A DNA stretch of 59,616 nt, from the IMG/VR virus record IMGVR_UViG_3300010391_000280, positions 1 to 59,616 of that record; one strand, given 5' to 3'. The notes beneath the pieces are model-generated. The model saw nothing but the letters and a program-made list of their open reading frames with translations. It had not been told where the DNA came from and did no database searches. A program made the position numbers and the translations under genes. The stretch comes from a virus. Shown here piece by piece: positions 3,102-56,802 of this stretch (position 1 is its first letter; every line of letters starts with the position of its first letter).

Positions 3102-4052
3102 ATGTCAAAAAAAATAGATACAGGTGCGATAGCATATTACAATGATGTAGCTTTCAATGCTATTGATTCCCTCACAGAAAAACAAGAAATTGAACTATTC
3201 AACAAAAGAACATTATTGCTAAAAGAAAAACCAGATAAAAAGAATAGAAAGAATATCAATGAGATTGATAATATACTTGTATTAAGTACAATAAAAATGG
3301 CTTATGAAATAGCACTAAGATATGCTACTAATATCCCAGGTATTGATATCAAAGATGCAATTCAAGAAGCCAATGAAGCACTAATTGATGCTATACGTCT
3401 ATACAATCCTGAAAAGAAAGGAAAGGACGGACTAAGAATTAAATTTAGAACCTATGCTTATATTCGAGCAGAATATAAAGTTAAAGATTATATTATGAAT
3501 AATTCTCGACTGGTGCGTCTGCCAAGAAGTAAACTAGACGATCTATTTCTGCTTATTGAAGCAATAGAATCACTTAGTCCAGAGGACACAATAGAGGAGC
3601 TTAGAATAAAGTTAAATGAAAAAGGCTCCAATATGAAAATAGAAGAGGTGTATAAATCTTTGGAGCTTCTCCAAGGAATTCACACTTCTCTAGATCAAAC
3701 GGTACGGAATGAAAGTGTTGGAAAAGATCAAACTCTTAAAGATATAATTCCAGTACCTGAAGATGTCCTTAACCAAGAACAAACACTTGACGTTAAAATG
3801 GCTACTGAGCTATTGAATAGTAAAGTGAAAGAAATTCTGGCTCCGTATAAAGATATGACCTATGAAGTAATCTACTATAGATTCTTAGACCCTTCCTTAA
3901 ATAAAATTAGAACCTATGAAGAGACAGCGAAAGCTCTTTATATAAATAAAGCTAGTATAAAAATCCTGAGTAAAGAGTGGATTAGACAGCTTGAATCTAT
4001 TGGAGTAGATCGCATTCATAAAAGGGCACCAGAGCTAAAGGATATTTTGTGA
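3102..4052 (+). CDS. Phage-encoded sigma70-family RNA polymerase sigma factor
   Basis: 316 residues. Residues about 55-140 match sigma region 2: DAIQEANEALIDAIRLYNPEK corresponds to the DLIQEGNxGLxxAxxxFDPxxG core-binding helix, and FRTYAYIRAEYKVKDYI to the -10 recognition helix (FxTYAxxxI). Residues about 155-205 resemble region 3 (SPEDTIEELRIKL ... TSLDQTV). Residues about 225-305 resemble region 4 (an acidic YEVIYYRF segment, then TYEETAKAL and a helix-turn-helix-like end). It should redirect host RNA polymerase to phage promoters. Candidate targets are the CAGATAnT promoters described here, especially the two late ones at 44.2 and 56.8 kb. The protein is divergent, so region borders are approximate. 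Confidence 0.85.
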   Translation: MSKKIDTGAIAYYNDVAFNAIDSLTEKQEIELFNKRTLLLKEKPDKKNRKNINEIDNILVLSTIKMAYEIALRYATNIPGIDIKDAIQEANEALIDAIRLYNPEKKGKDGLRIKFRTYAYIRAEYKVKDYIMNNSRLVRLPRSKLDDLFLLIEAIESLSPEDTIEELRIKLNEKGSNMKIEEVYKSLELLQGIHTSLDQTVRNESVGKDQTLKDIIPVPEDVLNQEQTLDVKMATELLNSKVKEILAPYKDMTYEVIYYRFLDPSLNKIRTYEETAKALYINKASIKILSKEWIRQLESIGVDRIHKRAPELKDIL

Positions 4053-4998: not shown

Positions 4999-5508
4999 AT
5001 GAAAGGCAAAGCAAGAAAAAGACAAGGGAAAAGAAATACTGAAAGCTGGAGAACTCTAATTTATCCAGGCTTATCTGTATACGAAGTAAGCAATCGTGGA
5101 CGAGTTAGAAAAGTTAAAGGTAAGCTTATACCTTCCAAGCCTTCAGGAAATAAAGGTGACTTAAGAGTTAGAGTTGTTTATAATGTGAAACCCCGCGTTC
5201 AAACACATTTGGTATTAAAATCCATAGTAGCAGATCATTGGCTTAGACCTAGAACGATAGGCAAGCGAGTTTATTTTTTAGACAAAAACACTCAAAATTG
5301 TGATGTAAGAAATTTAAGAGAAAAAGGAGTCACAAGATATAAAAATAGACGAATTACTCCTGGACTATTAGCTGATGTTCAATCATATTTTCAACATGAT
5401 ACCGTTCGAGGAAATCAAACACGAGCCTGTATCATGTTTGGATTAAACAAATCTACTGTTTCCTTAATAAAAAGGAAAGAAAGATATTATGTTGAGAATA
5501 AGATGTGA
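4999..5508 (+). CDS. NUMOD4-type DNA-binding protein with degenerate HNH region
   Basis: 169 residues. The N-terminus matches NUMOD4 (SWRTLIYPGLSVYEVSNRGRVR), found in phage homing endonucleases. The expected HNH follows: the VADHWLRP segment and NTQNCDVRNLREK resemble the conserved frame, but the central N-H-x-D-G-N is replaced by YFLDKN, so the catalytic His is gone. The C-terminal 50 residues are basic and may form a helix-turn-helix (NQTRACIMFGLNKSTVSLIKRKERYY). It is probably a former homing endonuclease retained as a DNA-binding protein. This is inference from the missing residue. Confidence 0.65.
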   Translation: MKGKARKRQGKRNTESWRTLIYPGLSVYEVSNRGRVRKVKGKLIPSKPSGNKGDLRVRVVYNVKPRVQTHLVLKSIVADHWLRPRTIGKRVYFLDKNTQNCDVRNLREKGVTRYKNRRITPGLLADVQSYFQHDTVRGNQTRACIMFGLNKSTVSLIKRKERYYVENKM

Positions 5509-6088
5509 TGATTATATGGTAAACAGTACAGAATTCATTAGAGAACGAGCTATCAAGCGTATAATTCAATTACATAAATGGATGGATCAAGCACCTCAAG
5601 GTTATTTTAATTATATACCTACAGTAATAGTAGGAGAGATGGATAATTGGCCAGAGATAACAGAACTGTTAAAACATGAAACAGCGGCCAATAAAATAAG
5701 TCCTCAAATTCATGGATATATGCATATTAACTATACTGATCTAGATAAAACTGTTATTCGTGAACATCTGCAAAAATGCATAGATTGGTTTAATAGTGCC
5801 TTAAAATATCAGCCTACTATTTGGGCAACCCCATGGGGAGCATGGACACAAGAAATGGAAGAGATAGCTGCCGAGTTTCAATTAACTCTTGAAACTACAG
5901 CGCCTACAATGCCTATTGGACAATGTATTGATTTATGTAAAACAACTGGAGTTGAAACTGTAAGGTATAACAGTCCTCTCGTATTAATTCATTGGTGGGA
6001 AAAAGGATTAAAACTGCTCAGGCTAACGGAGATAGTCAGGTATGGATCATATGATCTTGCGAAAAGATCGCGACCAGATTTGTTCTAG
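5489..6088 (+). CDS. Polysaccharide deacetylase-like (NodB-fold) protein
   Basis: 199 residues. It carries the hallmarks of carbohydrate esterase family 4: a D-D pair (RCDDY, D7-D8), a metal-binding H-x3-H (H75-GYM-H79), a TPWG loop (about 113-117) matching RxPxG, and a late IHWW segment. These residues bind a divalent metal and deacetylate N-acetyl sugars in cell-surface polysaccharides. The position in an early cluster with no signal peptide is unusual for such an enzyme and suggests a cytoplasmic substrate such as a nucleotide sugar or lipid-linked precursor; this is inference. The gene overlaps the upstream gene by 20 nt and the downstream gene by up to 47. Confidence 0.65.
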   Translation: MLRIRCDDYMVNSTEFIRERAIKRIIQLHKWMDQAPQGYFNYIPTVIVGEMDNWPEITELLKHETAANKISPQIHGYMHINYTDLDKTVIREHLQKCIDWFNSALKYQPTIWATPWGAWTQEMEEIAAEFQLTLETTAPTMPIGQCIDLCKTTGVETVRYNSPLVLIHWWEKGLKLLRLTEIVRYGSYDLAKRSRPDLF

Positions 6089-6910: not shown

Positions 6911-8353
6911 ATGAAAATCGAATACGATAATATAAAAGCTAAAGTATATGCTGAGTCTCAACACGAACAATCGTTTATTGAACAACTTAGATATGATACA
7001 TCTATTATAGCCCCTGGTGCTAGGTATATGTATACTCATAAGCAGTATATTAAAACCAAAGGCAAAGCCGGATGGGATGGTAAAGTATATTCAGTTGATA
7101 AAAATGGAACGTTTTTATCTGGTCTTGTTCCTAGTGTTCTAGATAAAGCAAGTAAAAATAAAATAAGTTATAAAGCAGATTATATAGGCCCCAACAGAAA
7201 CCCAGGCACTTCATTTAATAATACCACGGTACAACTTAGACCCTATCAAATGATAGGGGTAAACAAATGCTTAGGAAATGCTCATCCCGTATTGGGATGG
7301 AGCCCTAGAGGTATTATACAAGTAGCAACAGGTGGTGGAAAAACGGAGATGGCTATATCTATATATCAACAGCTTCCTCTGCCTACTATCTTTTTTGTTC
7401 AATTGAAATCTTTGCTCAAACAAACAGCAGATAGGTTTCAAAAGTATTCAATTAATCCAGGTATAATTGGAGATAGGCAATATAATATATCAAATGATAT
7501 TAATATTGCTACAGTACAAACAGTAGTCTCCTTACTCAAAAAAGGAGATCAACGTATCATTCGAATGATGAAAGAAGCCAAACAAGTATTCTTTGATGAA
7601 GCCCATGGCATTGCTGCCACAGTAGCCAAAGGAAATACTTTTGTTCAACTCGCATCAATGCTGGAGAACGCCTTTATAAGATGGGGACTCACAGCAACGC
7701 CGTTCATGCGAGATATTTACTCTAACAATTTGCTTGAAGGAGTGACTGGTCCTGTACTTTACAAGATATCTTCAGATGAATTAATCAAAGATGGATATCT
7801 TACTCCTCCTGATATTCAAATAATTCAATCTCCAAAGGTTCCTTGTAAGAACTCATGGCCTGAATGTTATGATTCAGCAATCGTACTAAACGCAGGCCGC
7901 AACAAACAAATTCTTGAAGAGTGCGTAAAAATCCCGAAGCCTTGTCTTATTATGTGTACACAAATCGCGCACGCAAAAATTATTGAACGCAATGCAATAC
8001 TATTCGGACTTCGCATGGGTTATCTAGATGGACAAAGTGATACAGGAACTAGAAATCATTTGATTGCAGAGCTAGTATTAGGCAATCTAGATGCAATAGT
8101 TTGTACAACCATTTTTAACGCAGGAATAGACATTCCCCAACTTAAGTCGTTAATATTAGCTGCTGGAGGTCGGTCTAAAGTGGCTCAATTACAGAAGCTA
8201 GGAAGAGGACTTAGAAGAGCTGCTGGAAAATCGTCTGTCACGGTAATTGACTTTTGGGATACGTCTAGTAAAATTCTCGAAAGACATTCAAAGGAAAGAA
8301 TGAGAACCTGGGAAAATGAAGGATTCAAAATCACTTCAATATCAAATAACTGA
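6911..8353 (+). CDS. SF2 DNA helicase, UvsW/DEAD-box-like
   Basis: 480 residues, a normal length for T4 UvsW-like helicases. After about 105 residues of N-terminal accessory domain it shows a Q-like motif (LRPYQMIGV), Walker A ATGGGKT (139-145), a DEAH box (VFFDEAHG), motif III-like GLTATPF, and motif VI GRGLRRAAGK. It should unwind branched DNA using ATP, acting in recombination-dependent replication or fork reversal. Neighbours include a replicative helicase 127 nt downstream. Assignment to SF2 is firm; the exact role is inferred from the UvsW resemblance. Confidence 0.88.
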   Translation: MKIEYDNIKAKVYAESQHEQSFIEQLRYDTSIIAPGARYMYTHKQYIKTKGKAGWDGKVYSVDKNGTFLSGLVPSVLDKASKNKISYKADYIGPNRNPGTSFNNTTVQLRPYQMIGVNKCLGNAHPVLGWSPRGIIQVATGGGKTEMAISIYQQLPLPTIFFVQLKSLLKQTADRFQKYSINPGIIGDRQYNISNDINIATVQTVVSLLKKGDQRIIRMMKEAKQVFFDEAHGIAATVAKGNTFVQLASMLENAFIRWGLTATPFMRDIYSNNLLEGVTGPVLYKISSDELIKDGYLTPPDIQIIQSPKVPCKNSWPECYDSAIVLNAGRNKQILEECVKIPKPCLIMCTQIAHAKIIERNAILFGLRMGYLDGQSDTGTRNHLIAELVLGNLDAIVCTTIFNAGIDIPQLKSLILAAGGRSKVAQLQKLGRGLRRAAGKSSVTVIDFWDTSSKILERHSKERMRTWENEGFKITSISNN

Positions 8354-8479
8354 CGCAGGAACTTTTACCTTCTTAAAAATGCATTCGGCGGGGAGAGGGC
8401 TGCGAAGGCGCAAGTCTAGCGGGAATAATTGGTGGATGCATAATAAAGCAGGAAGAATAATTTCTGTTAAGGAGAATAA

Positions 8480-9886
8480 ATGGATTTTAATGAAAAAGTT
8501 TTCTTGTATGCTCTATGTGGCAGGCCGGAAGACGCAAAGAGATTTGTAGGAATGTTTCAACCTTCATGGCTTGGAGATGTCAGGTTACAGCCGATATTAT
8601 CAGAAATATACGCTTTTACAATAAAACATGGAACCCCACCTTCCATAGATTTGCTTCATACGATTTTGAAAGATAAAGATAATGAGTTGTATGAATTGAG
8701 AATGAAAGACCCAATCAATGAGATTCAGTCAGAGACTCCAGATACAAGTGAGATGATTTATACTCTAAATCAGGCTAAACAAGTAGCGGTAGTACGTTCA
8801 TTTGTTGAGTTAACGCGAAACCCTGCATTTGTGGAAAGAGAAGTCGCTTATGACGGCGATACTTTAATTAAAGAAATACACACTTGGCTAACTAAATTTA
8901 ATAGTTCATCTGGAGATAGAACAATGGACTTGAAAGAAGCCATTGAAAATTTAATCCAGACTACTGGTTTTAATCAAACAAATGAACGAATTCCTGTCGG
9001 AATAGGGCCCATTGATGAATGGACCGGAAACGGACTACGAAGAAAACAATTAGGGGTTTTTCTAGCTCCTACAGGGCACGGAAAAACTGCTATATTGAAC
9101 ATTATTTCTCACAAAATTGCAACAATTGAACGTAAAAGAGTATGGTTTATTACCAACGAACTTTCAATTGAAGAAGTAACTGAACGGCTGATGACAAGAC
9201 TATCTGGTATAGAATTAGAAAGAATTATAGAAGATCCCATCATTGGATTTAAAGGATTAGACAGACATTGGAAAGACGGCCTCCAGAATCGCTTGTGGCT
9301 GTCTGAAGTAAATAGAGAGGTGTCCACGGACGATCTTGAGGCAGAGATGGCATCCTGGGCCAACGTGCGAGGCTGGAAGCCCGACGTAATCGTTCTAGAT
9401 TATATGGAACGAATGAAACCTACCATGAGCGGGTATCGAAGAGACAAAGAATGGCAATGGTTAGGGTCCATAGCTAACGATCTAGTTAGAATGGCCAAAA
9501 GACATAATATAGTTATATGGTCAGCGGCTCAGACCAATAGAGAAGGATTAAATGCAACTAGTGGTATTACAGGTAGTATGGCACAAGCCTCTATTCGACA
9601 TCTGCAAGAATGCACGGCAGTTATTGGAATGAGTCAGCAAGAAATGCCTGGAACAGATAAAATTGTCATGCAATTTAGTTCAATTAAACAAAGACAGAGC
9701 AGACGAGCGCCTCGCCCCATTGCTTTGGAATGTGATCTTGCTAAAATGAACATTACTAACATAGAAGTAGATATTGAGGAAGCTCAGCAAAAAGAAAATG
9801 CACGAAAGATAGAAGAAATAACTGAAGAAAATAGAGATTCAACTCCTCTTCAAGATCAAAAACGGAGAAAGAAATATGCGAAATAG
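8480..9886 (+). CDS. dnaB: DnaB-type replicative DNA helicase
   Basis: 468 residues. The N-terminal domain (1-150) is helical like DnaB/T4 gp41. The RecA-like motor follows with Walker A APTGHGKT (196-203), WFITNELS (H1a), Walker B VIVLDYMERM, and an SAAQTNREG segment matching motif H3. The C-terminal tail is charged, possibly for primase contact. It forms the hexameric helicase at the fork, together with the primase at 11888. The start is ATG behind AAGGAGAATAA. Assignment is firm. Confidence 0.92.
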   Translation: MDFNEKVFLYALCGRPEDAKRFVGMFQPSWLGDVRLQPILSEIYAFTIKHGTPPSIDLLHTILKDKDNELYELRMKDPINEIQSETPDTSEMIYTLNQAKQVAVVRSFVELTRNPAFVEREVAYDGDTLIKEIHTWLTKFNSSSGDRTMDLKEAIENLIQTTGFNQTNERIPVGIGPIDEWTGNGLRRKQLGVFLAPTGHGKTAILNIISHKIATIERKRVWFITNELSIEEVTERLMTRLSGIELERIIEDPIIGFKGLDRHWKDGLQNRLWLSEVNREVSTDDLEAEMASWANVRGWKPDVIVLDYMERMKPTMSGYRRDKEWQWLGSIANDLVRMAKRHNIVIWSAAQTNREGLNATSGITGSMAQASIRHLQECTAVIGMSQQEMPGTDKIVMQFSSIKQRQSRRAPRPIALECDLAKMNITNIEVDIEEAQQKENARKIEEITEENRDSTPLQDQKRRKKYAK

Positions 9887-10542: not shown

Positions 10543-10862
10543 TGAGTTTTTTCACATATAGACAAAATAATAGTGGTGGTTCATTTGTTGAAAATGAACA
10601 TGTAAATATATTTGTAATTATAGAAGCAGATTCTGCCAAACAAGCCGATAACAAAGCAAAATCTATAGACATATATTTCGATGGATGTGAAAACGGTACA
10701 GACTGTCATTGTTGCGGTGATCGCTGGAGTCGAGCAGCGACCACGTATTTTGAAGAAAAAGGCTTTTCGGAAAAATACGGTGGCGACCGGGGAACAATTA
10801 TTTACTATAAAAATGGAAATAAGGAAATAATAGGTGAAAGAATGGAAACCCAGGCTATTTAA
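10542..10862 (+). CDS. Conserved phage protein of the MSFFTYRQNNSGGSF type
   Basis: 106 residues. It starts MSFFTYRQNNSGGSF and contains VIIEADSAKQADNKA and a Cys cluster DCHCCGDRW. This combination recurs in small proteins of many tailed phages (a DUF-level family; I cannot recall its number with certainty). The Cys cluster may bind metal. The stop of the preceding gene overlaps the ATG. Function is unknown. Confidence 0.65.
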   Translation: MSFFTYRQNNSGGSFVENEHVNIFVIIEADSAKQADNKAKSIDIYFDGCENGTDCHCCGDRWSRAATTYFEEKGFSEKYGGDRGTIIYYKNGNKEIIGERMETQAI

Positions 10863-11100
10863 AAAATGGCCTCCTGAACTACAGGCTATTTATAACTTAT
10901 CTGATAAGAAATGGGAAAAGGCTATTAAAAGAATATTTATTGAAGCTGAATTAGCAGGAAAGAAAAATATTAAATCTGGTAAAGCTAAATGGGATTCAAT
11001 TACTCATGAAATAGTATGTAAAGAAAAATGTATTTTAGATCAGCCAAATAAAATAACTCAAAAAGGTGTTGACAAATCAGAAAAAAGTGCAGATAATTGA
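10834..11100 (+). CDS. Hypothetical Lys-rich protein, 88 aa
   Basis: A GTG start at 10834, behind AAGGAAATAATAG, overlaps the upstream gene by 29 nt. The protein is basic and helical (WPPELQAIYNLSDKKWEKAI; LAGKKNIKSGKAKW), with one C-x3-C late in the chain. Promoter site 2 is embedded in the last 32 nt of this gene, so its C-terminal residues are constrained by DNA regulatory sequence. Function is unknown. Confidence 0.5.
   Translation: MKEWKPRLFKKWPPELQAIYNLSDKKWEKAIKRIFIEAELAGKKNIKSGKAKWDSITHEIVCKEKCILDQPNKITQKGVDKSEKSADN
11069..11097 (+). promoter_or_regulatory. Promoter of the CAGATAnT family (site 2)
   Basis: -35 TTGACA at 11069-11074, 17-nt spacer containing AAAAAA, -10 GATAAT at 11092-11097 in the context TGCAGATAATTG. 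The -35 is a perfect sigma70 match and the -10 matches 5 of 6. The predicted start near the G at 11104 is exactly where the structured leader begins. It drives the unit leading to primase and DNA polymerase. Confidence 0.75.
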
Positions 11101-11103
11101 AAT

Positions 11104-11206
11104 GAGAGACACCAATCCTGGCCGAGTGATCGTGAGGCCAATAACCAGACAAAAGGTTTGGAATCTAGAGGAAAAGTAAACTGAAATGGTGTTAATTTAC
11201 TTTTCC
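11104..11206 (+). ncRNA. Structured leader or small RNA with possible pseudoknot
   Basis: Starting at the predicted transcript start, four helices can be drawn: GACACC 11108-11113 with GGTGTT 11188-11193; TGGCC 11119-11123 with GGCCA 11136-11140; CCAGAC 11145-11150 with GTTTGG 11156-11161; and an 11-bp perfect stem, 11170-11180 with 11196-11206. The first and last helices interlock, giving pseudoknot topology. The second arm resembles a class II tRNA D-arm (GGCCGAGTGATCGTGAGGCC), but no T-arm or U33 is present, so it is not a recognisable tRNA. It could be a riboswitch-like leader, a regulatory RNA or an origin-linked transcript. No known class is recognised. Confidence 0.45.
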
Positions 11207-11303
11207 GGGTCATAAACACAGTAGAGAAAAAAAATAATTAAATATTAACAATAATTATATTAACAGTAAAAAATAAAAATTTATGAATAACAAAAACAAT
11301 ATG
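11207..11303 (+). other. Very AT-rich non-coding spacer
   Basis: This stretch (for example TAATTAAATATTAACAATAA) has no convincing reading frame and almost no G or C from about 11219. It lies between the structured leader and the hairpin before the next gene, upstream of primase and polymerase. An origin or unwinding element is possible from composition and location, but no iterons or helicase-loader sites are seen. Confidence 0.3.
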
Positions 11304-11353
11304 AAGAAGAAAGATTAGAGACATAAGATTTGTTCTATAGTCTCTTTCTTCTT
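11304..11353 (+). other. Long hairpin just upstream of a ribosome binding site
   Basis: AAGAAGAAA (11304-11312) pairs with TTTCTTCTT (11345-11353), and after a bulge GAGAC (11318-11322) pairs with GTCTC (11340-11344). The loop can pair further (ATA with TAT). The stem ends 2 nt before the AAGAGG ribosome binding site of the gene at 11364. There is no U-run after it, so it is more likely an mRNA-stability, processing or translation-control hairpin than a terminator. Confidence 0.6.
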
Positions 11354-11363
11354 AAGAGGAAAA

Positions 11364-11648
11364 ATGAACACAAATAGATTTGCATCTGAAGCTGAAAAAT
11401 TCATAAACCAACAGCCTGAAGTTTGGGATTTGTTTGTAGGTTTTACCTTAGAGGCTATAGCTTCTGGTAGAAAACACTTTGGAGCCAAAGCAATCTGGGA
11501 AAGACTTCGATGGGAGACTGATATTGTAGCTGGCTATGATGATTATAAAATGAATAATAACTATCATGCTTATTTTGCAATCAGGTTTGAAAAACAATTC
11601 CCTAAGTACAAAGGCTTTTTTAGGCACCGAAAAGTTGGTACAATCTAA
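11364..11648 (+). CDS. Conserved phage protein with RWE and NNNYHAYFA motifs
   Basis: 94 residues. The sequence contains FTLEAIASGRKHFGAKAIWERLRWET and YKMNNNYHAYFAIRFEKQFP, a pattern seen in small proteins of many phages and some prophages; no function is established that I know of. It is first after the long structured leader and has an AAGAGG ribosome binding site. The product is soluble and helical. Confidence 0.7.
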   Translation: MNTNRFASEAEKFINQQPEVWDLFVGFTLEAIASGRKHFGAKAIWERLRWETDIVAGYDDYKMNNNYHAYFAIRFEKQFPKYKGFFRHRKVGTI

Positions 11649-11869
11649 TGGTTAACTATATTATAGTTTCGCTGGCTTTTGTTGTTGCTTTCATTGTTAC
11701 TTTTATTGCGGCTTCAGCGTCGCCTCCTGGTGAGGCATATCCTTCTCCAGATCAGAATATTATTGAAATAGGTAGTGTTAAAGACGTGGAGATTTATACT
11801 TATCTTTATCATGGACAGAGATGTTTTATAGCAGTGAATAATTCCAGTTTGGATTTGGAGTGTCTGTAA
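11648..11869 (+). CDS. Small membrane-anchored or exported protein, 73 aa
   Basis: An N-terminal hydrophobic helix (IIVSLAFVVAFIVTFIAASASP, about residues 4-25) is followed by a 48-residue polar, beta-looking domain with two Cys (GQRCFIA and LECL at the end). An AxA-like site after the helix (AASASPP) allows cleavage, so it could be secreted with a disulfide, or anchored. The start overlaps the upstream stop by 1 nt (TAATG). Function is unknown. Confidence 0.55.
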   Translation: MVNYIIVSLAFVVAFIVTFIAASASPPGEAYPSPDQNIIEIGSVKDVEIYTYLYHGQRCFIAVNNSSLDLECL

Positions 11870-11887
11870 TATGAGATTAGGTTATTA

Positions 11888-12793
11888 GTGAACAATGTTC
11901 TAAGCTGGTTAAAATCGGCTTTTTCGGTACAGTCCTTAAAGGGACAAGAAGTTAATTTTAATTGTCCATACTGTGAACATCCTAGATTTTATTTTAACTG
12001 GAAAAAGAAAGTAGGTTATTGTCACAGAGCCAGTTGTGGTAGGAAGCCTAATTTAAGTGATTTAGTTAAATTAAAAGGTTATGGCCCTTCTGATTATTAT
12101 ATTGATCAGTCTATTCAAGAAGCAGAGAAGCCTAAGAAGGTCGAGCTACCGCCTGGATTATGGGATATAACAGAGAATACCGATCCTTGGTTAGTAAAAG
12201 CTCTCGAATGTCGCGGAATTGTAAAAGCAAAAATAGATTTAATAGAAATTAAGGGATTTACAAATCGAGTTTATATTCCAATTACTTATAAAAGTGAATT
12301 GGTCCAGTTTATAGGACGAGCAATTGATAGATCAAAAGAGCCTGTTGATGGTTTTAAAACTGACCACTCTCAAAGATTTAAATACGCATCTGGATCTTCA
12401 GTAAGTAAATTCATTTTTAATTGGGACGTATCTAGTACCTGGGAAAAATTAGTACTTGTAGAAAGCACATTTAATGCAATTGCTTGGAACGATAAATTTA
12501 ATTGCACAACTAATTTTGGTTCTCATTTATCAGATATTCAAATAAATTTGCTTTCTCATTCTAATATAAAACAAGTCATATTTTCTTGGGATAAAGACGC
12601 CTACAAAAAAGCTTATGCGGCAGCCATTAAACTAGGAAAGGTAGGAATTAAAACAGCAATATTAATTTACAAAAACTATAATCAGCCTGATGAAATACAA
12701 TTTGACTTATTGTCACACACAATCAATGAAACATTTAAAGAATTAAATAAGAACGCCCCGCATAGCTTCGGGCCGTTGAGGAATACAATATGA
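11888..12793 (+). CDS. DNA primase (zinc finger plus Toprim)
   Basis: 301 residues, GTG start at 11888. The N-terminal 60 residues hold a primase zinc ribbon: CPYC (near 25), then CHRASCG (near 48). The Toprim-like core follows, with LVLVESTFNAIAW containing the catalytic acidic residue and VIFSWDKDAYKKA giving the D-x-D pair. It lays RNA primers for the DNA polymerase encoded just downstream (4-nt overlap) and should work with the helicase at 8480. No helicase domain is fused, so this is a stand-alone primase. Confidence 0.85.
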   Translation: MNNVLSWLKSAFSVQSLKGQEVNFNCPYCEHPRFYFNWKKKVGYCHRASCGRKPNLSDLVKLKGYGPSDYYIDQSIQEAEKPKKVELPPGLWDITENTDPWLVKALECRGIVKAKIDLIEIKGFTNRVYIPITYKSELVQFIGRAIDRSKEPVDGFKTDHSQRFKYASGSSVSKFIFNWDVSSTWEKLVLVESTFNAIAWNDKFNCTTNFGSHLSDIQINLLSHSNIKQVIFSWDKDAYKKAYAAAIKLGKVGIKTAILIYKNYNQPDEIQFDLLSHTINETFKELNKNAPHSFGPLRNTI

Positions 12794-15369
12794 GCTGTCG
12801 CATAGATGAAGGCGGTAGTCCTAACTGCCCAAGAGCAGCTAATTGTAAAAGTGTAGAACTCAGAGGCAGATCGTTATTTAGTATAAATCAATATAAACAA
12901 AGAATTACAAATACCACTACAGCAGAGGGTGGTCCTTATAAAGTAGTTTTTGTTGCTGATTATCCTGATAGATGGGACGATAGAAACGGATTTATCGGTC
13001 ATGCTAGAGGTATTGATAAAATAATTGAATTTTGTAATAGAGCAAATATACCTCTCCAATCTGCCTATTTAACTTATCTAACTCGTTGCTTTACTTATAA
13101 AAAGCCTTCTATTCAAGAACAGAAGGCTTGCACTCCTTATACAGTTGAAGATATTGAACGATTGTCTCCTGAAGTTGTCGTCCTATTAGGATCGGCAGCT
13201 CAGAAATTGTTTAATCTTCATACTCAAGGAGGAGTAACTAAACTACGAGGGAAGCATTTCTCGCTGCCTATTCCTGGCGGCGATCCAAATAAAACATATT
13301 CAGTTGTTGCTACCTATGATCCGGCTATATTTTTTCATAGGTCTGATTCCTTTTTAGAGCAGAGAATTTTAGATGATTATCGAATGATTAAAAAACTGGC
13401 TGATAAGAAGGAAGTTGAAGAAAAGAATCAATTTGCTAAATATGAAGTATTAAAAACCATTGAAGATATAAAAGAATTCATTCATGAAGTAAAACAAAAG
13501 AATTTTTTTGCGTTTGATACTGAATCTCGTGGTTTACCTTGGACTAGAGAACCTCTAATTCTTATTTCCTTTTCCTTAGGGGAAGGAAGAAACTATATCC
13601 TTCCATTATATTATCATGATTCTACAGGAAGTCCTTGGCTATTACGCCCAGCGTTTTCCAGTAAAGCAAAAAATGAAATAATTATTCCTTTACTTAAAGA
13701 AATCTTTGAGAGTGAAGATATACATAAATCCGCTCATAATATAAAGTACGATTCTAATGTTATAAGAAAGTATTTAGGTTTACGTGTTAATGGATATATT
13801 TATGATACAATGTTGATGCATCATCTATTAAATGAACAGAAACCTCATGATCTTGAATATTTAATGGACATTGAGTTTGGCAGCCGCAATTACAGCCACA
13901 AAGTAGAAGCTATTGTAGGGAAGGGAAAAATATTAAAACAACAATATGATGCAATTCCTGATGATGTACTACACGAATACACTGCGACAGACGTAGAAGG
14001 TACTTATAAGTTAACTAAAATTTATGCCGCGAGATTACGTGAATCTCCTAAATTATGGAATCTATATTGGGAAGAAACTGCTCAGCTTTCAAAAATTCTA
14101 ACTGATTCTGAATGGTACGGGCATGAAGTAGATATGGATATTCACGCTAAGCTTGTTAACTCATATACAAGCGATGCAGCTTCTTTATTAAAAGAAATTG
14201 AAACTGATACTTGGAAAGACTTTAATCCTAATTCATCACAGGATGTCCAAAAAGTTATCATATCTTCTGGATTTGAAGAAGCCATTCGTGATAAAAAGAA
14301 TATGAGCGGGTATTCTACTGGTAAAGAAAAATTAATGATACTTCAGAAACAGTTGCCTATTGTTGATAAAATTATTAGCTATCGTAATACACAGAAAATG
14401 CTCGGTACCTATCTTGAGAATGTAACATATGATAGAGACTTAGATAATAGAATAAGATATAGTTTTTTTATTCATGGTTCTGAAACAGGCAGGCTTTCTT
14501 GTCGCTTTTTACATCAATTACCTAGAGTTGACGAAAAACGAAAAATAAACATGAGAGACATGCTTATTTCTGCGCCTGGGTATAGTCTAGTTTATTTCGA
14601 TTACGATCAAATCGAAATGAGGGTCTTGACAGAACTCAGCGGAGATAAAGAACTATCTAAAATTTTTTGTTATCCTGAAAAAGAAACCATTGATGTTCAT
14701 AGAGCAACAGCCGGTACCGTGCTTAGTATAGACTACAATAAAGTATCTAATTTTAATAGACAAGAAGTAGGAAAATCAGTAAATTTTGGAATTTCTTATG
14801 GTTCGGAAGGTCACAGACTAGTTGCAAAATGTCAATGGGAAGATCCTAAAGGTTATAGACATCCTATCACATGGGATATGTTTAATGCAGGAATGAATAG
14901 ATTTAAGTCTAAATATATTAGTTTAACAGAATTTCTTGAAATTCAACCTGATATTGCTAGACGAAATGGTAATAAATTAACTACCCCGTTTGGTAGAGAT
15001 CGCAGGATGGGAGGTAAACTAAGTGACCCCGTGGAAGGTGTTCGTAAAGCAGCAGAAAGAGAAATTGTTAATTTTATTATTCAATCTACTGCCGTGGCGA
15101 TTACTTATAGAAGCCTTATTATACTTGATTCTATCATACGCGCTTGGATTCGATCTGGTGAAGTTAAAGAAGGAGACATTAGATTAGTAAACACTGTCCA
15201 CGATTCAGGTATGTATGAAGTAAAAAATGAATATATTAATAAATGGACAGATGTTCTTAAAAAGACTTTAGTAAGACCTATAATTGAACTTAACAATAGA
15301 CAATTTCCATGCGCTATTGGTATAGGTCTTACTTCTACTAAAGCAGAGAAAGATAAAATTGCACAATAA
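12790..15369 (+). CDS. polA: DNA polymerase I with N-terminal uracil-DNA-glycosylase-like domain
   Basis: 859 residues. Residues 1-205 resemble family 4/5 uracil-DNA glycosylase: VVFVADYPDRWDD for the GEAPGxxED loop, C13, C19, C100 and C114 as likely 4Fe-4S ligands, VVVLLGSAAQKLF, and TYDPA where active enzymes have xxHPS, so D177 replaces the motif-2 His. Residues 235-410 are the 3'-5' exonuclease (D243/E245, D321, Y397/D401). The polymerase has motif A DYDQIEMR (D604), motif B with R657, K662, F666, Y670, and motif C VHDS (D805), with Ser in place of the usual Glu. No 5'-3' exonuclease is present. It is the replicative polymerase. The glycosylase part may sense uracil rather than excise it (inference). 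Confidence 0.9.
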   Translation: MSCRIDEGGSPNCPRAANCKSVELRGRSLFSINQYKQRITNTTTAEGGPYKVVFVADYPDRWDDRNGFIGHARGIDKIIEFCNRANIPLQSAYLTYLTRCFTYKKPSIQEQKACTPYTVEDIERLSPEVVVLLGSAAQKLFNLHTQGGVTKLRGKHFSLPIPGGDPNKTYSVVATYDPAIFFHRSDSFLEQRILDDYRMIKKLADKKEVEEKNQFAKYEVLKTIEDIKEFIHEVKQKNFFAFDTESRGLPWTREPLILISFSLGEGRNYILPLYYHDSTGSPWLLRPAFSSKAKNEIIIPLLKEIFESEDIHKSAHNIKYDSNVIRKYLGLRVNGYIYDTMLMHHLLNEQKPHDLEYLMDIEFGSRNYSHKVEAIVGKGKILKQQYDAIPDDVLHEYTATDVEGTYKLTKIYAARLRESPKLWNLYWEETAQLSKILTDSEWYGHEVDMDIHAKLVNSYTSDAASLLKEIETDTWKDFNPNSSQDVQKVIISSGFEEAIRDKKNMSGYSTGKEKLMILQKQLPIVDKIISYRNTQKMLGTYLENVTYDRDLDNRIRYSFFIHGSETGRLSCRFLHQLPRVDEKRKINMRDMLISAPGYSLVYFDYDQIEMRVLTELSGDKELSKIFCYPEKETIDVHRATAGTVLSIDYNKVSNFNRQEVGKSVNFGISYGSEGHRLVAKCQWEDPKGYRHPITWDMFNAGMNRFKSKYISLTEFLEIQPDIARRNGNKLTTPFGRDRRMGGKLSDPVEGVRKAAEREIVNFIIQSTAVAITYRSLIILDSIIRAWIRSGEVKEGDIRLVNTVHDSGMYEVKNEYINKWTDVLKKTLVRPIIELNNRQFPCAIGIGLTSTKAEKDKIAQ

Positions 15370-15379
15370 AGGAGAATAA

Positions 15380-15817
15380 ATGGAATTGATTAATAATCTG
15401 TTTCATGTTGATACAGATCAAGGTATAAGGTTAATTGAAATTAATTCTGACGATTTTTCTATTGATGAAATGAATATAGAATCTGAATTATGTAAAGCAG
15501 GTGTTTTACTTTGTTACTATAGTGATTTGGCTGCTGAATTAGATGCAAAAGCCGCCAACCTTAAGAACAAGGCCGATGAAGTAAGGGGGAAACAAGCAAT
15601 TGAATTGAGAAAAGTTCATACAGGATCTAGGCTTACTGAAAATATGCTTGATGAAATGATTGTAACGTCTCCCGGATATCAAACAATTCGTAGTCTTTTG
15701 GTTGAGGCTCAAAAAGAAGCATTTAAAGCAAGTAACCTCTTCAAATCAATGAATCAACGGGTGGAGTGCCTCAAGGCTTTGTCGTATAGGCAAGGAAAGC
15801 AAGAGAAAGTTTTTTAA
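15380..15817 (+). CDS. Hypothetical coiled-coil protein, 145 aa
   Basis: The C-terminal two thirds are strongly helical (YYSDLAAELDAKAANLKNKADEVRG; LLVEAQKEAFKASNLFKSM). RLTENMLDEMIVTSPGYQ is a distinctive segment. Size, helicity and position between polymerase and SSB would fit a UvsY-like recombination mediator that loads RecA/UvsX onto SSB-coated DNA, and both partners are encoded nearby, but no diagnostic motif is visible, so this is inference. It has a good ribosome binding site (AAAGGAGAATAAATG). Confidence 0.6.
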   Translation: MELINNLFHVDTDQGIRLIEINSDDFSIDEMNIESELCKAGVLLCYYSDLAAELDAKAANLKNKADEVRGKQAIELRKVHTGSRLTENMLDEMIVTSPGYQTIRSLLVEAQKEAFKASNLFKSMNQRVECLKALSYRQGKQEKVF

Positions 15818-15825
15818 AAAAGCAG

Positions 15826-15854
15826 TTGACAAATGACACAAAAAAGCAGATAAT
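15826..15854 (+). promoter_or_regulatory. Promoter of the CAGATAnT family (site 3), upstream of ssb
   Basis: -35 TTGACA at 15826-15831, 17-nt spacer with an A-run, -10 GATAAT at 15849-15854 in the context AGCAGATAATTC. The predicted start near 15861 is followed at once by a small hairpin, GCGG 15863-15866 with CCGC 15872-15875. GGAC 15865-15868 can instead pair with GTCC 15889-15892 beside the AAAGGAG ribosome binding site. Such a leader would suit autogenous control of an SSB, as known for T4 gene 32. Confidence 0.75.
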
Positions 15855-15897
15855 TCTCATGAGCGGACAACCCGCCCAAAGCAAAGGAGTCCTATAA

Positions 15898-16650
15898 ATG
15901 ACTGATGCAAATGGTTTTTTCCCGGTTAATCAAAACGAAGTAGACAAGCAATCAGGCGTCCAGCCTTTTCTATTTCTAAAGGAAGGTATCACCCAAATCA
16001 GGGTGCTTCCTCCCTATTCTAATAAAGGTGTCTGGGCTCGCGAAATTCGTGAGCATAGCCTAACTATTGAAGGCAAGTTTATGACCTTTACTTGCCCTAA
16101 ATATCACGATAGCGATCCTTGTCCTTTTTGTGAGGAAGGTGCAAATCTTCATTCTCAAGGTACTGAGGAGAGCGTTGAAGCTTCAAAAGTACTTAGACCT
16201 AAGCGTTCATTTCTTTTCAATGTTCTAGTATACTCTGCTCCTGGAGATCAACTCTCACTTCGATCAGGAGTAAAAGTACTCAAGACTGGTATTACTGTTC
16301 AACGCCAAGTTTTTGATCTTGATCAGGACGCAGCCGGCGGTTGGGGTAATATTTATGATCTTGAGAAGGGGTTTGATCTTAGAATTACTGCAAAAGGCGC
16401 CGGTAGGTCGAGAGAGTATATTATAAAGGGCGTGCCAGGTCGAACTAATGTATTGGAGCAACTTAAAATTCAAGGAGTCAGTATTGAATTGAAACCTGTT
16501 AATCTTGATGAGCTTCTTCCTTGTCAACCCTACGACAAGTTGCAGCGCGCGCTTCAGGATTCCCGTAGCGTTTTAAATACTGCTCCTACTGATTCAGGCG
16601 TACATGACCCATCATCTAAGATGGCTCCTCCTAGTGGAGGACCAGTTTAA
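15898..16650 (+). CDS. Single-stranded DNA-binding protein (T4 gp32-like)
   Basis: 250 residues. The core shows a zinc site TCPKYHDSDPCPFC (C66, H70, C75, C78), the C/H-x-C-x2-C arrangement of gp32-like SSBs, flanked by an OB-type beta region (QIRVLPPYSNKGVWARE; RSFLFNVLVYS). The C-terminal tail is flexible and Pro/Ser/Gly-rich; it is less acidic than in gp32. It coats single-stranded DNA for polymerase, recombinase and helicase. Its own promoter and leader imply abundant, possibly self-regulated expression. Confidence 0.85.
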   Translation: MTDANGFFPVNQNEVDKQSGVQPFLFLKEGITQIRVLPPYSNKGVWAREIREHSLTIEGKFMTFTCPKYHDSDPCPFCEEGANLHSQGTEESVEASKVLRPKRSFLFNVLVYSAPGDQLSLRSGVKVLKTGITVQRQVFDLDQDAAGGWGNIYDLEKGFDLRITAKGAGRSREYIIKGVPGRTNVLEQLKIQGVSIELKPVNLDELLPCQPYDKLQRALQDSRSVLNTAPTDSGVHDPSSKMAPPSGGPV

Positions 16651-16916
16651 TGTGGTATCCTCAAGGACAAACTGTATTTGTCAAAAAATCGGTTCCTAAG
16701 GAAATAACTGATGGTGGAATTGTTCTTCCTAATGCTCAGCAAGAATTGACTCTTGAAGGCACTGTTATTCTTGTATCTGATGGTTTTGGAGTTTATAAAG
16801 GAAAAAAGGTATTGTTTAGTAAATTTTCTGGGTCTGAAGTTAAGGTTGGCAGCGAGTCGCTGTTAATTATGAGAGTGGAAGATATACTCGCAGTTTGGAC
16901 TGATGAAACATTGTAA
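16650..16916 (+). CDS. GroES-like co-chaperonin
   Basis: 88 residues. It aligns along its length with GroES: a mobile-loop region DGGIVLPNAQQELTLEG (GroES has TAGGIVLxxxxxxxPxxG), then VILVSDGFGVYKGKKVLFSKFSGSEVKVG and LLIMRVEDILAV. It should cap host GroEL to fold phage proteins, as T4 gp31 does, most plausibly the major capsid protein. It is translationally coupled to ssb (TAATG overlap). Slightly shorter than bacterial GroES (about 95). Assignment is firm. Confidence 0.88.
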   Translation: MWYPQGQTVFVKKSVPKEITDGGIVLPNAQQELTLEGTVILVSDGFGVYKGKKVLFSKFSGSEVKVGSESLLIMRVEDILAVWTDETL

Positions 16917-17352
16917 TAAATGTAATTCCGATAAATTTCCAGGTGACTTCTATAAAAACAAAAAAGCTAAAGATGGTTTACATTCTTGGTGTAAAGAGTG
17001 CTGTAGGGTATATCACCAAACAGAACACTATTTAAAAATAAGAAATAAATATCAAAAATCCGAAGCTGGAAAAGTTAGCAAAAAGAAATATCAACAATCA
17101 GATGGATATAAATTACTGAGGAAAAGAAACCATGTAAAACGTAATTACAATATAGATATAAAAGACATTCCAAATAAGTGTCAAGTTTGTGATTCTGGTG
17201 GTAAGATTAGTGTGGATCACTGTCATAGGACAGGAAAAGTTAGAGGTTTCCTCTGTCAAAATTGCAATGTTACATTGGGAATGGCAAAAGACGATATTTC
17301 AAGGCTACAAAAATTGATAAACTATTTAAATAAGGAAGAGGAAAATGTTTAG
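16903..17352 (+). CDS. Recombination endonuclease VII-like HNH nuclease
   Basis: 149 residues. An N-terminal zinc element (CNKCNSDKFPGDFYKNK ... WCKECC) precedes a basic linker. The C-terminal nuclease part has CQVC, DHCHRTGKVRGFLCQNCNVTLG and a helical end, the exact signature of endonuclease VII (CxxC ... DHxHxTGxxRGxLCxxCNxxLG). It resolves Holliday junctions and mismatched branches before packaging. It overlaps the GroES-like gene by 14 nt. Assignment is firm. Confidence 0.88.
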   Translation: MKHCNKCNSDKFPGDFYKNKKAKDGLHSWCKECCRVYHQTEHYLKIRNKYQKSEAGKVSKKKYQQSDGYKLLRKRNHVKRNYNIDIKDIPNKCQVCDSGGKISVDHCHRTGKVRGFLCQNCNVTLGMAKDDISRLQKLINYLNKEEENV

Positions 17353-17677
17353 TACGAAGACTGTAACGGTAGATAAGGTTACCGAGCTTGTTACCAATTA
17401 CAAGAATGGAAATATTACACTTACTAGTATTGCTATGGAGCTTGGTTGTTCTGTTCCTACAGCCGCCCGCCTCCTCAAGAAGGAGGGAGTGGTAATGCGT
17501 GGAAAGGGGCGGCCCAAGGGGAGTAAAACGGTAAATCGCAAGCCTAAAGTTGTGACCTTTAAGCAGGTTGTAAATCCTGAAGTAAACGATACGCTTCCTG
17601 TTTCTGATAAGAAGCTGCTAGTGGATTCTGGGGACTTCGCTGCTTTTCAAAAGCGCGTACTTAATTACGCCAAATAA
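17345..17677 (+). CDS. Helix-turn-helix protein with AT-hook
   Basis: 110 residues. Residues about 25-48 form a resolvase-like helix-turn-helix (NITLTSIAMELGCSVPTAARLLKKEG). It is followed by GKGRPKGSK (53-61), an AT-hook core (GRPKG) that binds the minor groove of AT-rich DNA. The tail is basic and then mixed. It is a probable DNA-binding regulator or nucleoid-type protein and suits an AT-rich genome. Its overlap with the endonuclease VII gene suggests co-translation. Confidence 0.7.
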   Translation: MFSTKTVTVDKVTELVTNYKNGNITLTSIAMELGCSVPTAARLLKKEGVVMRGKGRPKGSKTVNRKPKVVTFKQVVNPEVNDTLPVSDKKLLVDSGDFAAFQKRVLNYAK

Positions 17678-17686
17678 TCTAAGTAA

Positions 17687-17746
17687 TTCTTCCCGAGTGA
17701 AGTTGCTGCGGTACAAGACTGTAGGGCGGTTAACTGACGGGAAGAA
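17687..17746 (+). other. 60-nt stem-loop element in the leader of the next gene
   Basis: TTCTTCCCG (17687-17695) pairs perfectly with CGGGAAGAA (17738-17746), enclosing a 42-nt interior that holds AGTT/AACT (17701-17704 with 17732-17735) and TACA/TGTA (17712-17715 with 17720-17723) as nested helices. The element ends a few bases before the CAGGAGAAATTT ribosome binding site of the gene at 17765. No U-run follows. It is a likely structured leader or processing site. Confidence 0.55.
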
Positions 17747-17764
17747 AGAATTCAGGAGAAATTT

Positions 17765-18064
17765 ATGTGGCCGTTTAAGCGTGAAGTTGAAATTGAATTG
17801 GTTTCTCATATTAAGAGCGTGCGAAGGACAATTTATCTTACTGATAAGTCAACTATTGTTTCATATATGCAGGAAGTCGGAACAGCCAGAGAGGGTGCCC
17901 CTCCTCCGGCTAACTATCACTTTGAAGCCCGTACGAGACATAATGATGAATGGGATAGCTCGTGGAGTCATTCTAATGACAGCTTTTTCCTTAGGGGCAG
18001 TGACCCGACAGCCTTAATAAGGCGAGACATGATTACCAAAATTACATATGAAGTAGTAGAATAG
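17765..18064 (+). CDS. Hypothetical protein, 99 aa
   Basis: ATG at 17765 follows a strong AGGAG. The protein is soluble and beta-rich (VEIELVSHIKSVRRTIYLTDKSTIVSYM; YHFEARTRHNDEWDSSW), with a segment rich in Asp/Ser/Trp. No family is recognised. Its TAG overlaps the GTG start of the recombinase gene, so the two are likely coupled. Function is unknown. Confidence 0.6.
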   Translation: MWPFKREVEIELVSHIKSVRRTIYLTDKSTIVSYMQEVGTAREGAPPPANYHFEARTRHNDEWDSSWSHSNDSFFLRGSDPTALIRRDMITKITYEVVE

Positions 18065-19134
18065 TGCCAACATTTGACGATTTATTTTCCAAAATAAATA
18101 AAGATATTGCTAAAGATCCTGGTTGTTCAGTTAAAAGGCCCGGGGATATAACGCTCAGTAGTCGTATTCCGTATGGAATTCCATCAGGAATTCCTGAGTT
18201 AGAATTGGCCATTGGGAGACCTGGTATACCTGCTGGTCGAATTACAGAATTGTATGGGTTTGAACGATCTGGAAAAACTACGGCTGCTTTACATATTCTC
18301 GCATCCGCCCAGAGAATGGGTGGCGGCGGCATGTATATTGATTCTGAATCTACTTGGGACGAAGAGCGGGCTATTCAACTCGGGGTCGATCCAGATAAAA
18401 ATTTAATAATTGGTGAAGTTCAAAATATTGAAGGTATTTTTAGATTACTGCTTTCTTCTCTAGATAATCTCAGAGAAGTAGGGCTTACTAAACCGTTTGT
18501 TTTTGTTGTTGATTCAATTACTGGTGTTGAATCTGAAGTTAACGATGACGCCAAAAAATTCGGCAAAGAAGCTAGAGTAGGCCAAGACGCTAGACTTATT
18601 CGTAGAGGAGTGAGGTTGACAAATAAGAAGATAGCTGAAACCAAAGCAGCCGCTATCTTTATTAATCATGCTATATCCAATATCAATAGTAATCCTTTTG
18701 CCCCACAATCTACTGCTGCTGGTGGTAGAGCACTTAAATTATTTTCTACTCTTCGTATACAATTTAGTCAGGGATCTGAAATTCAAGATAAGAGAGGCGA
18801 GAAAGGGGAAATCCGCCTTCGTCATGGTATGACTTCAAACATTAAGGTAGAGAAATTAAAAGGATCTAAATTAATGTTTCAATTTTTTCAGTTAGATCTT
18901 TTAGATGAAGGCGGGTTTGATACTGCTTCTTCTTTGCTTAAAGCAGGCGTACATACAGGATGGATAGAAAAAGAGAACCCTAAAACGTATAAACTAGGAG
19001 ATCATGAATTTCCTGAAGCTGATTGGCGGTCTGTGATTTCAATTCTCGGTGGAAAAGATGTAGCTTATGAATCTTGGCTTAAATGGTGCCTTGAAAATAA
19101 AAAACTTAATCTTTGGGCTAATTGGAATGGCTAA
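18064..19134 (+). CDS. RecA/UvsX-type recombinase
   Basis: 356 residues, GTG start at 18064 overlapping the upstream TAG. Walker A is GFERSGKTT, followed by a RecA-like MYIDSE, Walker B FVFVVDSITG, and FINHAISN where RecA has FINQ (the gamma-phosphate sensor region). A Gly-rich TAAGGRALKLFSTLRIQ matches the L2/DNA-binding area. It forms filaments on ssDNA and drives strand exchange, working with the SSB, SbcCD and endonuclease VII encoded in the same arm. Assignment is firm; it is divergent from bacterial RecA. Confidence 0.9.
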   Translation: MPTFDDLFSKINKDIAKDPGCSVKRPGDITLSSRIPYGIPSGIPELELAIGRPGIPAGRITELYGFERSGKTTAALHILASAQRMGGGGMYIDSESTWDEERAIQLGVDPDKNLIIGEVQNIEGIFRLLLSSLDNLREVGLTKPFVFVVDSITGVESEVNDDAKKFGKEARVGQDARLIRRGVRLTNKKIAETKAAAIFINHAISNINSNPFAPQSTAAGGRALKLFSTLRIQFSQGSEIQDKRGEKGEIRLRHGMTSNIKVEKLKGSKLMFQFFQLDLLDEGGFDTASSLLKAGVHTGWIEKENPKTYKLGDHEFPEADWRSVISILGGKDVAYESWLKWCLENKKLNLWANWNG

Positions 19135-19211
19135 TCCTGCGCAGATCGTGTAACTAGCCATATCGTAGAACCGTCTGGCATGCTCAGGTATGCCTCTGAG
19201 GAGATGGAGCC

Positions 19212-19517
19212 GTGAACGAAACTTACCTGATCGTGCCGCCCTGTGCGGAATGCGAGCACCTGCGCGCCGAGGTGAAGGCTTTGCATGAGGTGGAGCACGT
19301 CGAGCTAGCCCACTTGCGCGCCGAGGTGGCCGAGCTGCGACGTGAAAACACGCGCATTGCATTGGGCCAGCCAGCCGTAGAAGCAAACATCAAGCTACGC
19401 GAAGAGATAGACGTAGTGCGCAGCGAACTCGACGCAGCCCGCAGAGAGAGAGATCGCTATCTGGAGAGGTTGGACCGTATCATCAAAGCTTGGTCCAGCG
19501 AGGCAAACTTGCCATGA
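19212..19517 (+). CDS. GC-rich coiled-coil protein, 101 aa (probable recent import)
   Basis: A GTG at 19212 lies behind GAGGAGATGGAGC. After a short head with CAEC, residues about 15-95 are an almost uninterrupted charged coiled coil (HLRAEVKALHEVEHVELAHL; LRRENTRIA; SELDAARRERDRYLERLDR). Codon use is strikingly GC-rich (GCGCGC, GAGCTGCGACG), unlike the AT-rich genes on both sides, and the change is abrupt at about 19135 and 19513. It therefore looks like an insertion between recombinase and sbcD. Function is unknown. Confidence 0.6.
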   Translation: MNETYLIVPPCAECEHLRAEVKALHEVEHVELAHLRAEVAELRRENTRIALGQPAVEANIKLREEIDVVRSELDAARRERDRYLERLDRIIKAWSSEANLP

Positions 19518-24436: not shown

Positions 24437-24437
24437 A

Positions 24438-56643: not shown

Positions 56644-56674
56644 CTTTTCTCCTCCGGCGATGAAGCCGTAAATT

Positions 56675-56738
56675 GAACAGTTCTTCCGGGTGAGACGAGT
56701 CCCAACTTGGATACCAAGGTAAAACTGTTCTTCGTCTC
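56675..56738 (-). promoter_or_regulatory. Interlocked leader structure of the capsid operon mRNA
   Basis: In the transcribed strand, GAGACGA (56738-56732) pairs with TCGTCTC (56698-56692), 7 bp; GAACAGTT (56730-56723) pairs with AACTGTTC (56682-56675), 8 bp; and CTTGG-TAT-CCAAG (56718-56706) forms a small hairpin between them. The two long helices interlock (order 1-2-1'-2'), a pseudoknot or two mutually exclusive folds. It begins about 13 nt after the predicted start and ends about 30 nt before the GGAGGAG site. Confidence 0.6.
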
Positions 56739-56757
56739 TTTAATGGTTCTCTATTTA

Positions 56758-56786
56758 ATTATCTGATTAATTAGGGAAAAAAACAA
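56758..56786 (-). promoter_or_regulatory. Late promoter 1 (CAGATAnT family, site 6)
   Basis: On the minus strand: -35 TTGTTT (56786-56781), 17-nt spacer, -10 GATAAT (56763-56758) in the context ATCAGATAATTA. The -10 and initiation region share a 21-bp identity with late promoter 2. The poor -35 but conserved discriminator suggests dependence on an activator or the phage sigma factor. Drives scaffold and major capsid genes. Confidence 0.75.
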
Positions 56787-56802
56787 CTTTTTATAAAATT
56801 AA

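What the first reader, a model, noticed from the sequence alone, without database searches (positions are those of the whole stretch)
11069..11363. Promoter running straight into a 260-nt structured, non-coding leader with pseudoknot potential
The predicted start (about 11104) coincides with the first of several helices: an outer 6-bp stem, two internal hairpins, one resembling a class II tRNA D-arm, and an 11-bp perfect stem that interlocks with the outer stem. A very AT-rich stretch and a bulged 14-bp hairpin ending at the next ribosome binding site follow. In a genome this compact, 260 nt without a gene before primase and polymerase needs a function: riboswitch, regulatory RNA, or origin with RNA primer.
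Basis: partly seen in the sequence, partly recalled or inferred. Interest (0 to 1): 0.65.

Follow-up and report, generated by a model that had tools for sequence, protein, structure and literature searches.

The report
Phage replication-operon leader RNA, probable pseudoknot
A virus of bacteria starts the messenger RNA for its DNA-copying genes with a 260-letter untranslated stretch that probably folds into a knot; close relatives lack this exact RNA, but they keep the same layout at the same place, and the same virus opens its coat-protein message with a different RNA knot that evolution has clearly preserved.

Summary
A strong promoter (11069-11097, TTGACA-N17-GATAAT) runs into a 263-nt gap (11101-11363). 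Its first ~110 nt fold better than shuffles (z about -2.8). A crossing 7-bp + 11-bp pair gives an H-type pseudoknot (48 of 5,000 shuffles as good). Then come the most A-rich stretch of the genome and a 14-bp bulged hairpin ending 1 nt before the Shine-Dalgarno.

The promoter is real by repetition: near-copies precede the ssb gene and two other genes. The leader sequence itself is in no relative found, so covariation cannot be tested. The layout recurs at the syntenic site: L120 has promoter, 100 nt, A-rich stretch, hairpin, primase; L045/L046 and L060/L070 have most of it. In the same window the late (capsid) operon also opens with an H-type pseudoknot, supported by covariation in 11 sequences plus 2 later ones.

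Most likely reading: a cis-acting 5' leader of the replication-operon mRNA that protects the 5' end and keeps the ribosome site open (mechanism inferred). gp32-like operator, Put-like antiterminator and origin are rivals. No riboswitch, tRNA or Rfam family was found. The late leader is the stronger discovery.

The parts
11069..11097 (+). sigma-70-type phage promoter TTGACA-N17-GATAAT; overlaps the 3' end of ORF 10834-11100
   Evidence: same motif before ssb (15826), at 44192(-) and 56763(-)
11104..11104 (+). predicted transcription start (7 nt after the -10 hexamer)
   Evidence: inference from promoter spacing; not measured
11108..11114 (+). S1 5' strand of the pseudoknot (GACACCA)
11119..11140 (+). 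hairpin 1 (TGGCC/GGCCA, 12-nt loop)
11145..11161 (+). hairpin 2 (CCAGAC/GTTTGG, 5-nt loop)
11170..11180 (+). S2 5' strand (GGAAAAGTAAA)
11187..11193 (+). S1 3' strand (TGGTGTT), inside the S2 loop: H-type pseudoknot
   Evidence: 48 of 5000 shuffles as good
11196..11206 (+). S2 3' strand (TTTACTTTTCC)
11207..11211 (+). GGGTC, alternative nested partner of 11108-11113
   Evidence: pseudoknot-free MFE
11214..11303 (+). A-rich single-stranded linker
   Evidence: most A-rich stretch of the window; same feature at the syntenic site in L120, L045/L046, L060, L069
11304..11353 (+). bulged 14-bp terminal hairpin
11355..11360 (+). Shine-Dalgarno AGAGGA, just after the hairpin
   Evidence: sequence
11364..11648 (+). 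first gene of the operon (94 aa, phrog_13625, function unknown)
11888..12793 (+). DNA primase
12790..15369 (+). DNA polymerase A with N-terminal UDG domain
15826..15855 (+). near-copy of the promoter, before the gp32-like ssb gene (15898)
56644..56763 (-). sister element: late (capsid) promoter -10 and leader; H-type pseudoknot plus hairpin before the Shine-Dalgarno, conserved with compensatory changes in relatives

Best explanation
The region is the 5' leader RNA of the phage's primase-polymerase mRNA and acts in cis. Shown by computation: a recurring phage promoter, a better-than-chance 5' fold with a crossing helix, an A-rich unpaired linker, a hairpin that ends beside the Shine-Dalgarno, and the same order of parts at the syntenic site in relatives. 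Inferred: transcription starts near 11104. The pseudoknot forms within a few nucleotides of the 5' end and shields it from 5'-end-dependent decay. The linker and the terminal hairpin keep the ribosome-binding site clear of the knot and of upstream sequence. The replication message is thereby long-lived and translated whatever lies upstream. The late operon of the same phage uses a differently built pseudoknot leader in the same position, so this looks like a general habit of the phage rather than a gene-specific switch.
For: Promoter motif repeated in the window with near-zero expectation. Fold z -2.8 and pseudoknot p about 0.01. Syntenic promoter plus leader in L120 (tGGACA-N17-GATACT, nearly T-free A-rich 113 nt, long hairpins, primase) and in L060/L070/L106. 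The A-rich segment is the highest-scoring of its locus in L120, L045, L046, L060, L069 and L070. About 20 relatives have TTGCAA/CTGGCA-N17-TATAAT right after dnaB with a short hairpin leader. The late leader starts with an H-type pseudoknot whose helices S1, S2, S3, P4 are kept by 8, 10, 9 and 7 different strand combinations in 11 sequences (246 of 247 pairs standard) at nearly constant spacing; the descriptor fits 10 of 10 leaders against 2.7% of shuffles.
Against: No relative carries this exact RNA, so no covariation for the helices of 11104-11206 themselves. The nested alternative fold competes with the pseudoknot. The 5' domain of L120 is not clearly structured (z -1.1, pseudoknot p 0.6). 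Nothing here measures transcription, decay or translation. The mid and late knots are built differently, so the late covariation supports the habit, not this fold.
Confidence: 0.5

Rival explanations
1. gp32-like translational operator: the phage's own single-strand-binding protein nucleates on the 5' pseudoknot and spreads over the A-rich linker, damping the replication operon when enough SSB is present.
For: The T4 gene 32 operator is a 5' pseudoknot followed by a less structured stretch of more than 40 nt (PMC535899). This phage encodes a gp32-like SSB (PF08804; phrog_1192). Same order of parts here.
Against: The leader precedes primase/polymerase, not ssb. In T4 the unstructured part contains the Shine-Dalgarno; here a 14-bp hairpin separates them. 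The ssb leader here is about 45 nt with no pseudoknot seen. The 5' knot is about 100 nt, not 28 nt.
Confidence: 0.15
2. Put-like antitermination: the nascent leader RNA binds RNA polymerase and makes it resist pauses and terminators in the long operon downstream.
For: HK022 putL is a ~70-nt structured RNA just downstream of an early promoter and acts without a protein (PMC9378689). Both the mid and the late operon here begin with structured RNA at the start site.
Against: putRNA is two stem-loops with no pseudoknot reported; only 7 terminator-like sites, fewer than in shuffles, lie in 11000-26000; no sequence likeness could be tested.
Confidence: 0.12
3. Replication origin: the promoter makes an RNA primer and the AT-rich stretch opens the DNA, as in the T7 primary origin or T4 oriF.
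For: Promoter followed by 83% AT DNA beside the helicase, primase and polymerase genes.
Against: The stretch is strand-biased (A 62%, T 22%; 4% T in L120) and only 68-74% AT in most relatives; no iterons; no skew turn at the site; another intergenic stretch at 26755-26878 is even more AT-rich (10% GC).
Confidence: 0.12
4. Processed trans-acting RNA: the 5' domain is cut off in the A-rich linker and works as a separate small RNA.
For: An A/U-rich single-stranded linker between two folded parts is a likely RNase E target (general knowledge of RNase E); a discrete ~110-nt domain.
Against: No conservation of the 5' domain in relatives; no terminator after it.
Confidence: 0.05
5. A spacer without specific function: a strong promoter plus drifting DNA whose fold is a modest chance event.
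For: p about 0.01 for the fold with no conservation; other gaps of similar length exist in the window.
Against: The layout recurs at the syntenic site in several diverged relatives, in six loci with the strongest A-rich segment of the locus.
Confidence: 0.1

Closest known systems
T4 gene 32 translational operator (pseudoknot plus unstructured tract)
   Same: H-type pseudoknot followed by an A/U-rich unpaired stretch in a phage replication-gene mRNA leader; the phage has a gp32-like SSB
   Different: precedes primase/polymerase genes, not ssb; much larger 5' domain with two extra hairpins; Shine-Dalgarno separated from the tract by a hairpin
HK022 putL RNA
   Same: structured RNA starting almost at the promoter start site of a phage operon
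   Different: putL is ~70 nt of two stem-loops without a reported pseudoknot; antitermination not tested here
T7 primary origin / T4 oriF
   Same: promoter followed by an AT-rich stretch near replication genes (recalled from general knowledge, not tested)
   Different: strand-biased A-rich rather than simply AT-rich in relatives; no skew signal; T7 uses its own RNA polymerase
Late-operon leader of the same phage (this window, 56644-56763, -)
   Same: same promoter type, H-type pseudoknot near the 5' end, hairpin just before the Shine-Dalgarno
   Different: extra hairpin sits between S2-5' and S1-3' instead of two hairpins between S1-5' and S2-5'; no A-rich linker; covariation-supported

Membership tests
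T4 gene 32-type operator | pseudoknot upstream of the regulated start codon | tested here: met
   (nominal p about 0.01; prediction only)
T4 gene 32-type operator | adjacent unstructured tract that contains the Shine-Dalgarno | tested here: not met
   tract 11214-11303 is separated from the Shine-Dalgarno by the 11304-11353 hairpin
T4 gene 32-type operator | regulated gene is the SSB gene | tested here: not met
   ssb lies at 15898 with its own promoter at 15826
T4 gene 32-type operator | SSB binds the leader and represses | not testable with these tools
   needs binding and reporter assays
HK022 put RNA | structured RNA promoter-proximal in an operon | tested here: met
HK022 put RNA | two adjacent stem-loops, ~70 nt | tested here: not met
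   predicted pseudoknotted ~100 nt with two further hairpins; put architecture from PMC9378689
HK022 put RNA | antitermination through the RNAP beta' zinc-binding domain | not testable with these tools
   needs in vitro transcription
known riboswitch or other Rfam family | covariance-model match at the curated threshold | tested here: not met
   0 matches in the window at gathering; only chance eukaryotic hits at E <= 10
tRNA or tmRNA | ARAGORN match | tested here: not met
replication origin | AT-rich unwinding element with iterons or a skew turn | tested here: inconclusive
   AT-rich stretch present, no iterons, no skew turn; initiation not measurable here

The most novel reading that the evidence does not exclude
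A widespread, uncultivated group of large phages (relatives 83-121 kb) opens its middle and late operons with transcription-start-proximal H-type pseudoknots that work as general 5' caps or polymerase-loading signals. They are not in Rfam release 15. The leader at 11104 would be the replication-operon version of this strategy.
Probability: 0.35. Interest if true: 0.75.

Novelty: new variant of a known kind. Interest (0 to 1): 0.5.

Why it matters
Pseudoknots at phage mRNA 5' ends are rare in the literature: a 2010 review calls the T4 gene 32 case perhaps the only viral one used in translational autoregulation (PMC3014915). A phage that begins two different operons this way, one of them with clear covariation over very diverged relatives, makes the question of what such knots do (decay, translation, antitermination) testable with simple reporters. 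The conserved late leader would also be a new RNA family.

Tried and rejected
Close homologues of the leader: none in phage records, IMG/VR by exact 22-mer, or the MCP/DnaB/polymerase relatives. Neighbour gene 11364 in other phages (CRP-901, Hodr, Lo5R7ANS, Quesadilla): different context in the annotated regions; their upstream sequences were not folded. tRNA-like domain: no support. RBS-mimic switch (S2 3' arm pairing with the true RBS, suggested by the 81% direct repeat 11167/11355): p 0.24-0.33 and rank 30 of 67 genes, rejected. Leader peptides (25, 9 and 11 codons): no well-placed Shine-Dalgarno, not pursued. Origin by skew or iterons: no signal. Hammerhead-like reading of the L060/L070/L106 leader: core not matched by eye; one pattern scan for more members found only the known ones plus three others that do not look like this leader. 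MAFFT alignment of the late leaders was too poor to use, so they were aligned by structure. More hosts: 46 genomes of the phylum of the L120 MAG gave no further DnaB relative.

Full report
What is there. At 11069-11097 the window has TTGACA-N17-GATAAT, 11 of 12 consensus matches. The region then stays without a gene until ORF 11364. The exact promoter pattern occurs twice in 59.6 kb against 0.03 expected. A longer pattern drawn from these two, allowing 3 mismatches, hits three places against zero in shuffles. Related CAGATAATT sites lie about 4740(+), 44169(-) and 56763(-), in front of genes. This is a phage promoter family, so transcription starting near 11104 is a good inference, though not measured.

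The fold. The first ~110 nt fold with z between -2.2 and -2.9 depending on the ends chosen. The outer stem's 3' strand lies in the loop of the 11-bp stem, so the two interlock as an H-type pseudoknot. A simple two-helix search finds exactly this knot as the best one; 48 of 5,000 dinucleotide shuffles do as well, and 64 of 2,976 windows of the genome. A nested alternative (11108-11113 with GGGTC 11207-11211) competes. The support is therefore real but modest.

The rest of the leader. From 11214 to about 11303 the RNA is about 62% A; three of the four most A-rich 90-nt windows of the genome lie there. A bulged 14-bp hairpin (11304-11353, z -2.2) ends 1 nt before AGAGGA.

Relatives. The genome is diverged from all isolate records (best polymerase match about 26% identical). 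The major capsid protein found relatives in IMG/VR at 71-86%. The polymerase and DnaB found 36 and 37 more loci, some of them overlapping or distant; contigs that also carry a related capsid protein reach 83-121 kb. One MAG contig, L120, was found in the genome collection. None carries this leader sequence (exact 22-mer). The question 'do the helices covary' thus has no data yet.

Layout at the syntenic site. L120, between dnaB and primase: a matching promoter (tGGACAAATCCCTCGGGAAAAGCGATACT), ~100 nt, 113 nt of A-rich RNA with 4% T, two long hairpins (z -4.4), primase. L045/L046: a weak promoter in the end of the preceding ORF, A-rich 111-121 nt, long hairpin (z about -4), with one A-U to G-C compensatory change between them by eye. 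L060/L070/L106: TTTGCAAT...TATAAT-type promoter directly before a leader sharing AGTGCTGA...AATGAAACCCA, in L060/L070 followed by an A-rich segment and a hairpin at the Shine-Dalgarno. In six of these loci the leader's A-rich segment is the strongest of the whole locus. About 20 further relatives have a promoter right after dnaB and a short leader with a 5' hairpin (mean z -1.7 on simple shuffles); L090 forms its own H-type pseudoknot. The 5' domains themselves are not conserved: L120 is not clearly knotted.

The sister leader. The late operon on the minus strand (56763 to 56644) starts from the same promoter type and opens with S1 GAGACG/CGTCTC, S2 GAACAGTT/AACTGTTC, S3 CTTGG/CCAAG and P4 CGGC/GCCG before the Shine-Dalgarno. 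In 11 sequences the four helices are kept by 8, 10, 9 and 7 different strand combinations, 246 of 247 pairs standard, and S3-to-S1 is 8 nt in 9 of 11. The helices were picked by eye; as a control, a descriptor made from them finds all 10 non-redundant leaders but 2.7% of shuffles. Two leaders fetched later (L138, L136) fit; L130 and L025 do not. A minimal descriptor alone hits 83 places in the window, so only position plus conservation carries the weight. It is not in Rfam.

What it most likely does. A promoter-proximal, fast-evolving, structured leader in front of replication genes, in a phage that opens another operon the same way, points to a cis-acting leader. 5'-end protection plus an open ribosome site is the simplest common function; it is inferred. 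The T4 gene 32 operator and HK022 put are the nearest known arrangements; each fails at least one defining feature here. The T-depletion of the linker, with C present in relatives, suits unpaired RNA better than a DNA melting element, so an origin is less likely but open.

A switch that failed. The S2 5' strand resembles the true RBS (11167-11187 against 11355-11375, 81%), suggesting mutually exclusive pairing. The energy is ordinary (p 0.24-0.33) and 29 other genes of the phage score at least as well.

Noticed in passing
56644-56763 (-); L020, L024, L026, L027, L028, L029, L129, L131, L132, L134, L136, L138: Late (capsid) operon leader: covariation-supported H-type pseudoknot starting at or close to the transcription start, plus a hairpin before the Shine-Dalgarno; no Rfam match. 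Probably a new RNA family.
   Followed up: yes
about 56790-56868 (-) and upstream of the late promoter in L020-L134: Terminator-like hairpin just upstream of the late promoter whose loop is C-rich (CCTCCC-like) in most relatives.
   Followed up: no
L060 4221-4545, L070 4566-4833, L106 about 5127-5516: Second leader class at the syntenic site: shared AGTGCTGA...CCTCT...AATGAAACCCA with a possible small pseudoknot (TGG/CCA to CGG/CCG).
   Followed up: partly
L084-L104, L112, L118, just after dnaB: Promoter TTGCAA- or CTGGCA-N17-TATAAT followed by ~60-nt leaders; many share ACATACACCT...AGGGAGG.
   Followed up: partly
L135/L138 (MAG contig of L120, 117401-119489): Major capsid gene interrupted: residues 1-22 and 20-403 lie about 875 nt apart, possibly an intron.
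   Followed up: no
19135-19517: GC-rich (58%) patch in a 37% GC genome between uvsX and sbcD, apparently a recently acquired ORF (19212-19517); L044 has a similar GC-rich patch at 8065-8549.
   Followed up: no
26755-26878: 124-nt intergenic stretch with 10% GC after the ribonucleotide reductase gene.
   Followed up: no
3102-4052: Phage-encoded sigma-factor-like protein (phrog_351), a possible reader of the promoter family.
   Followed up: no
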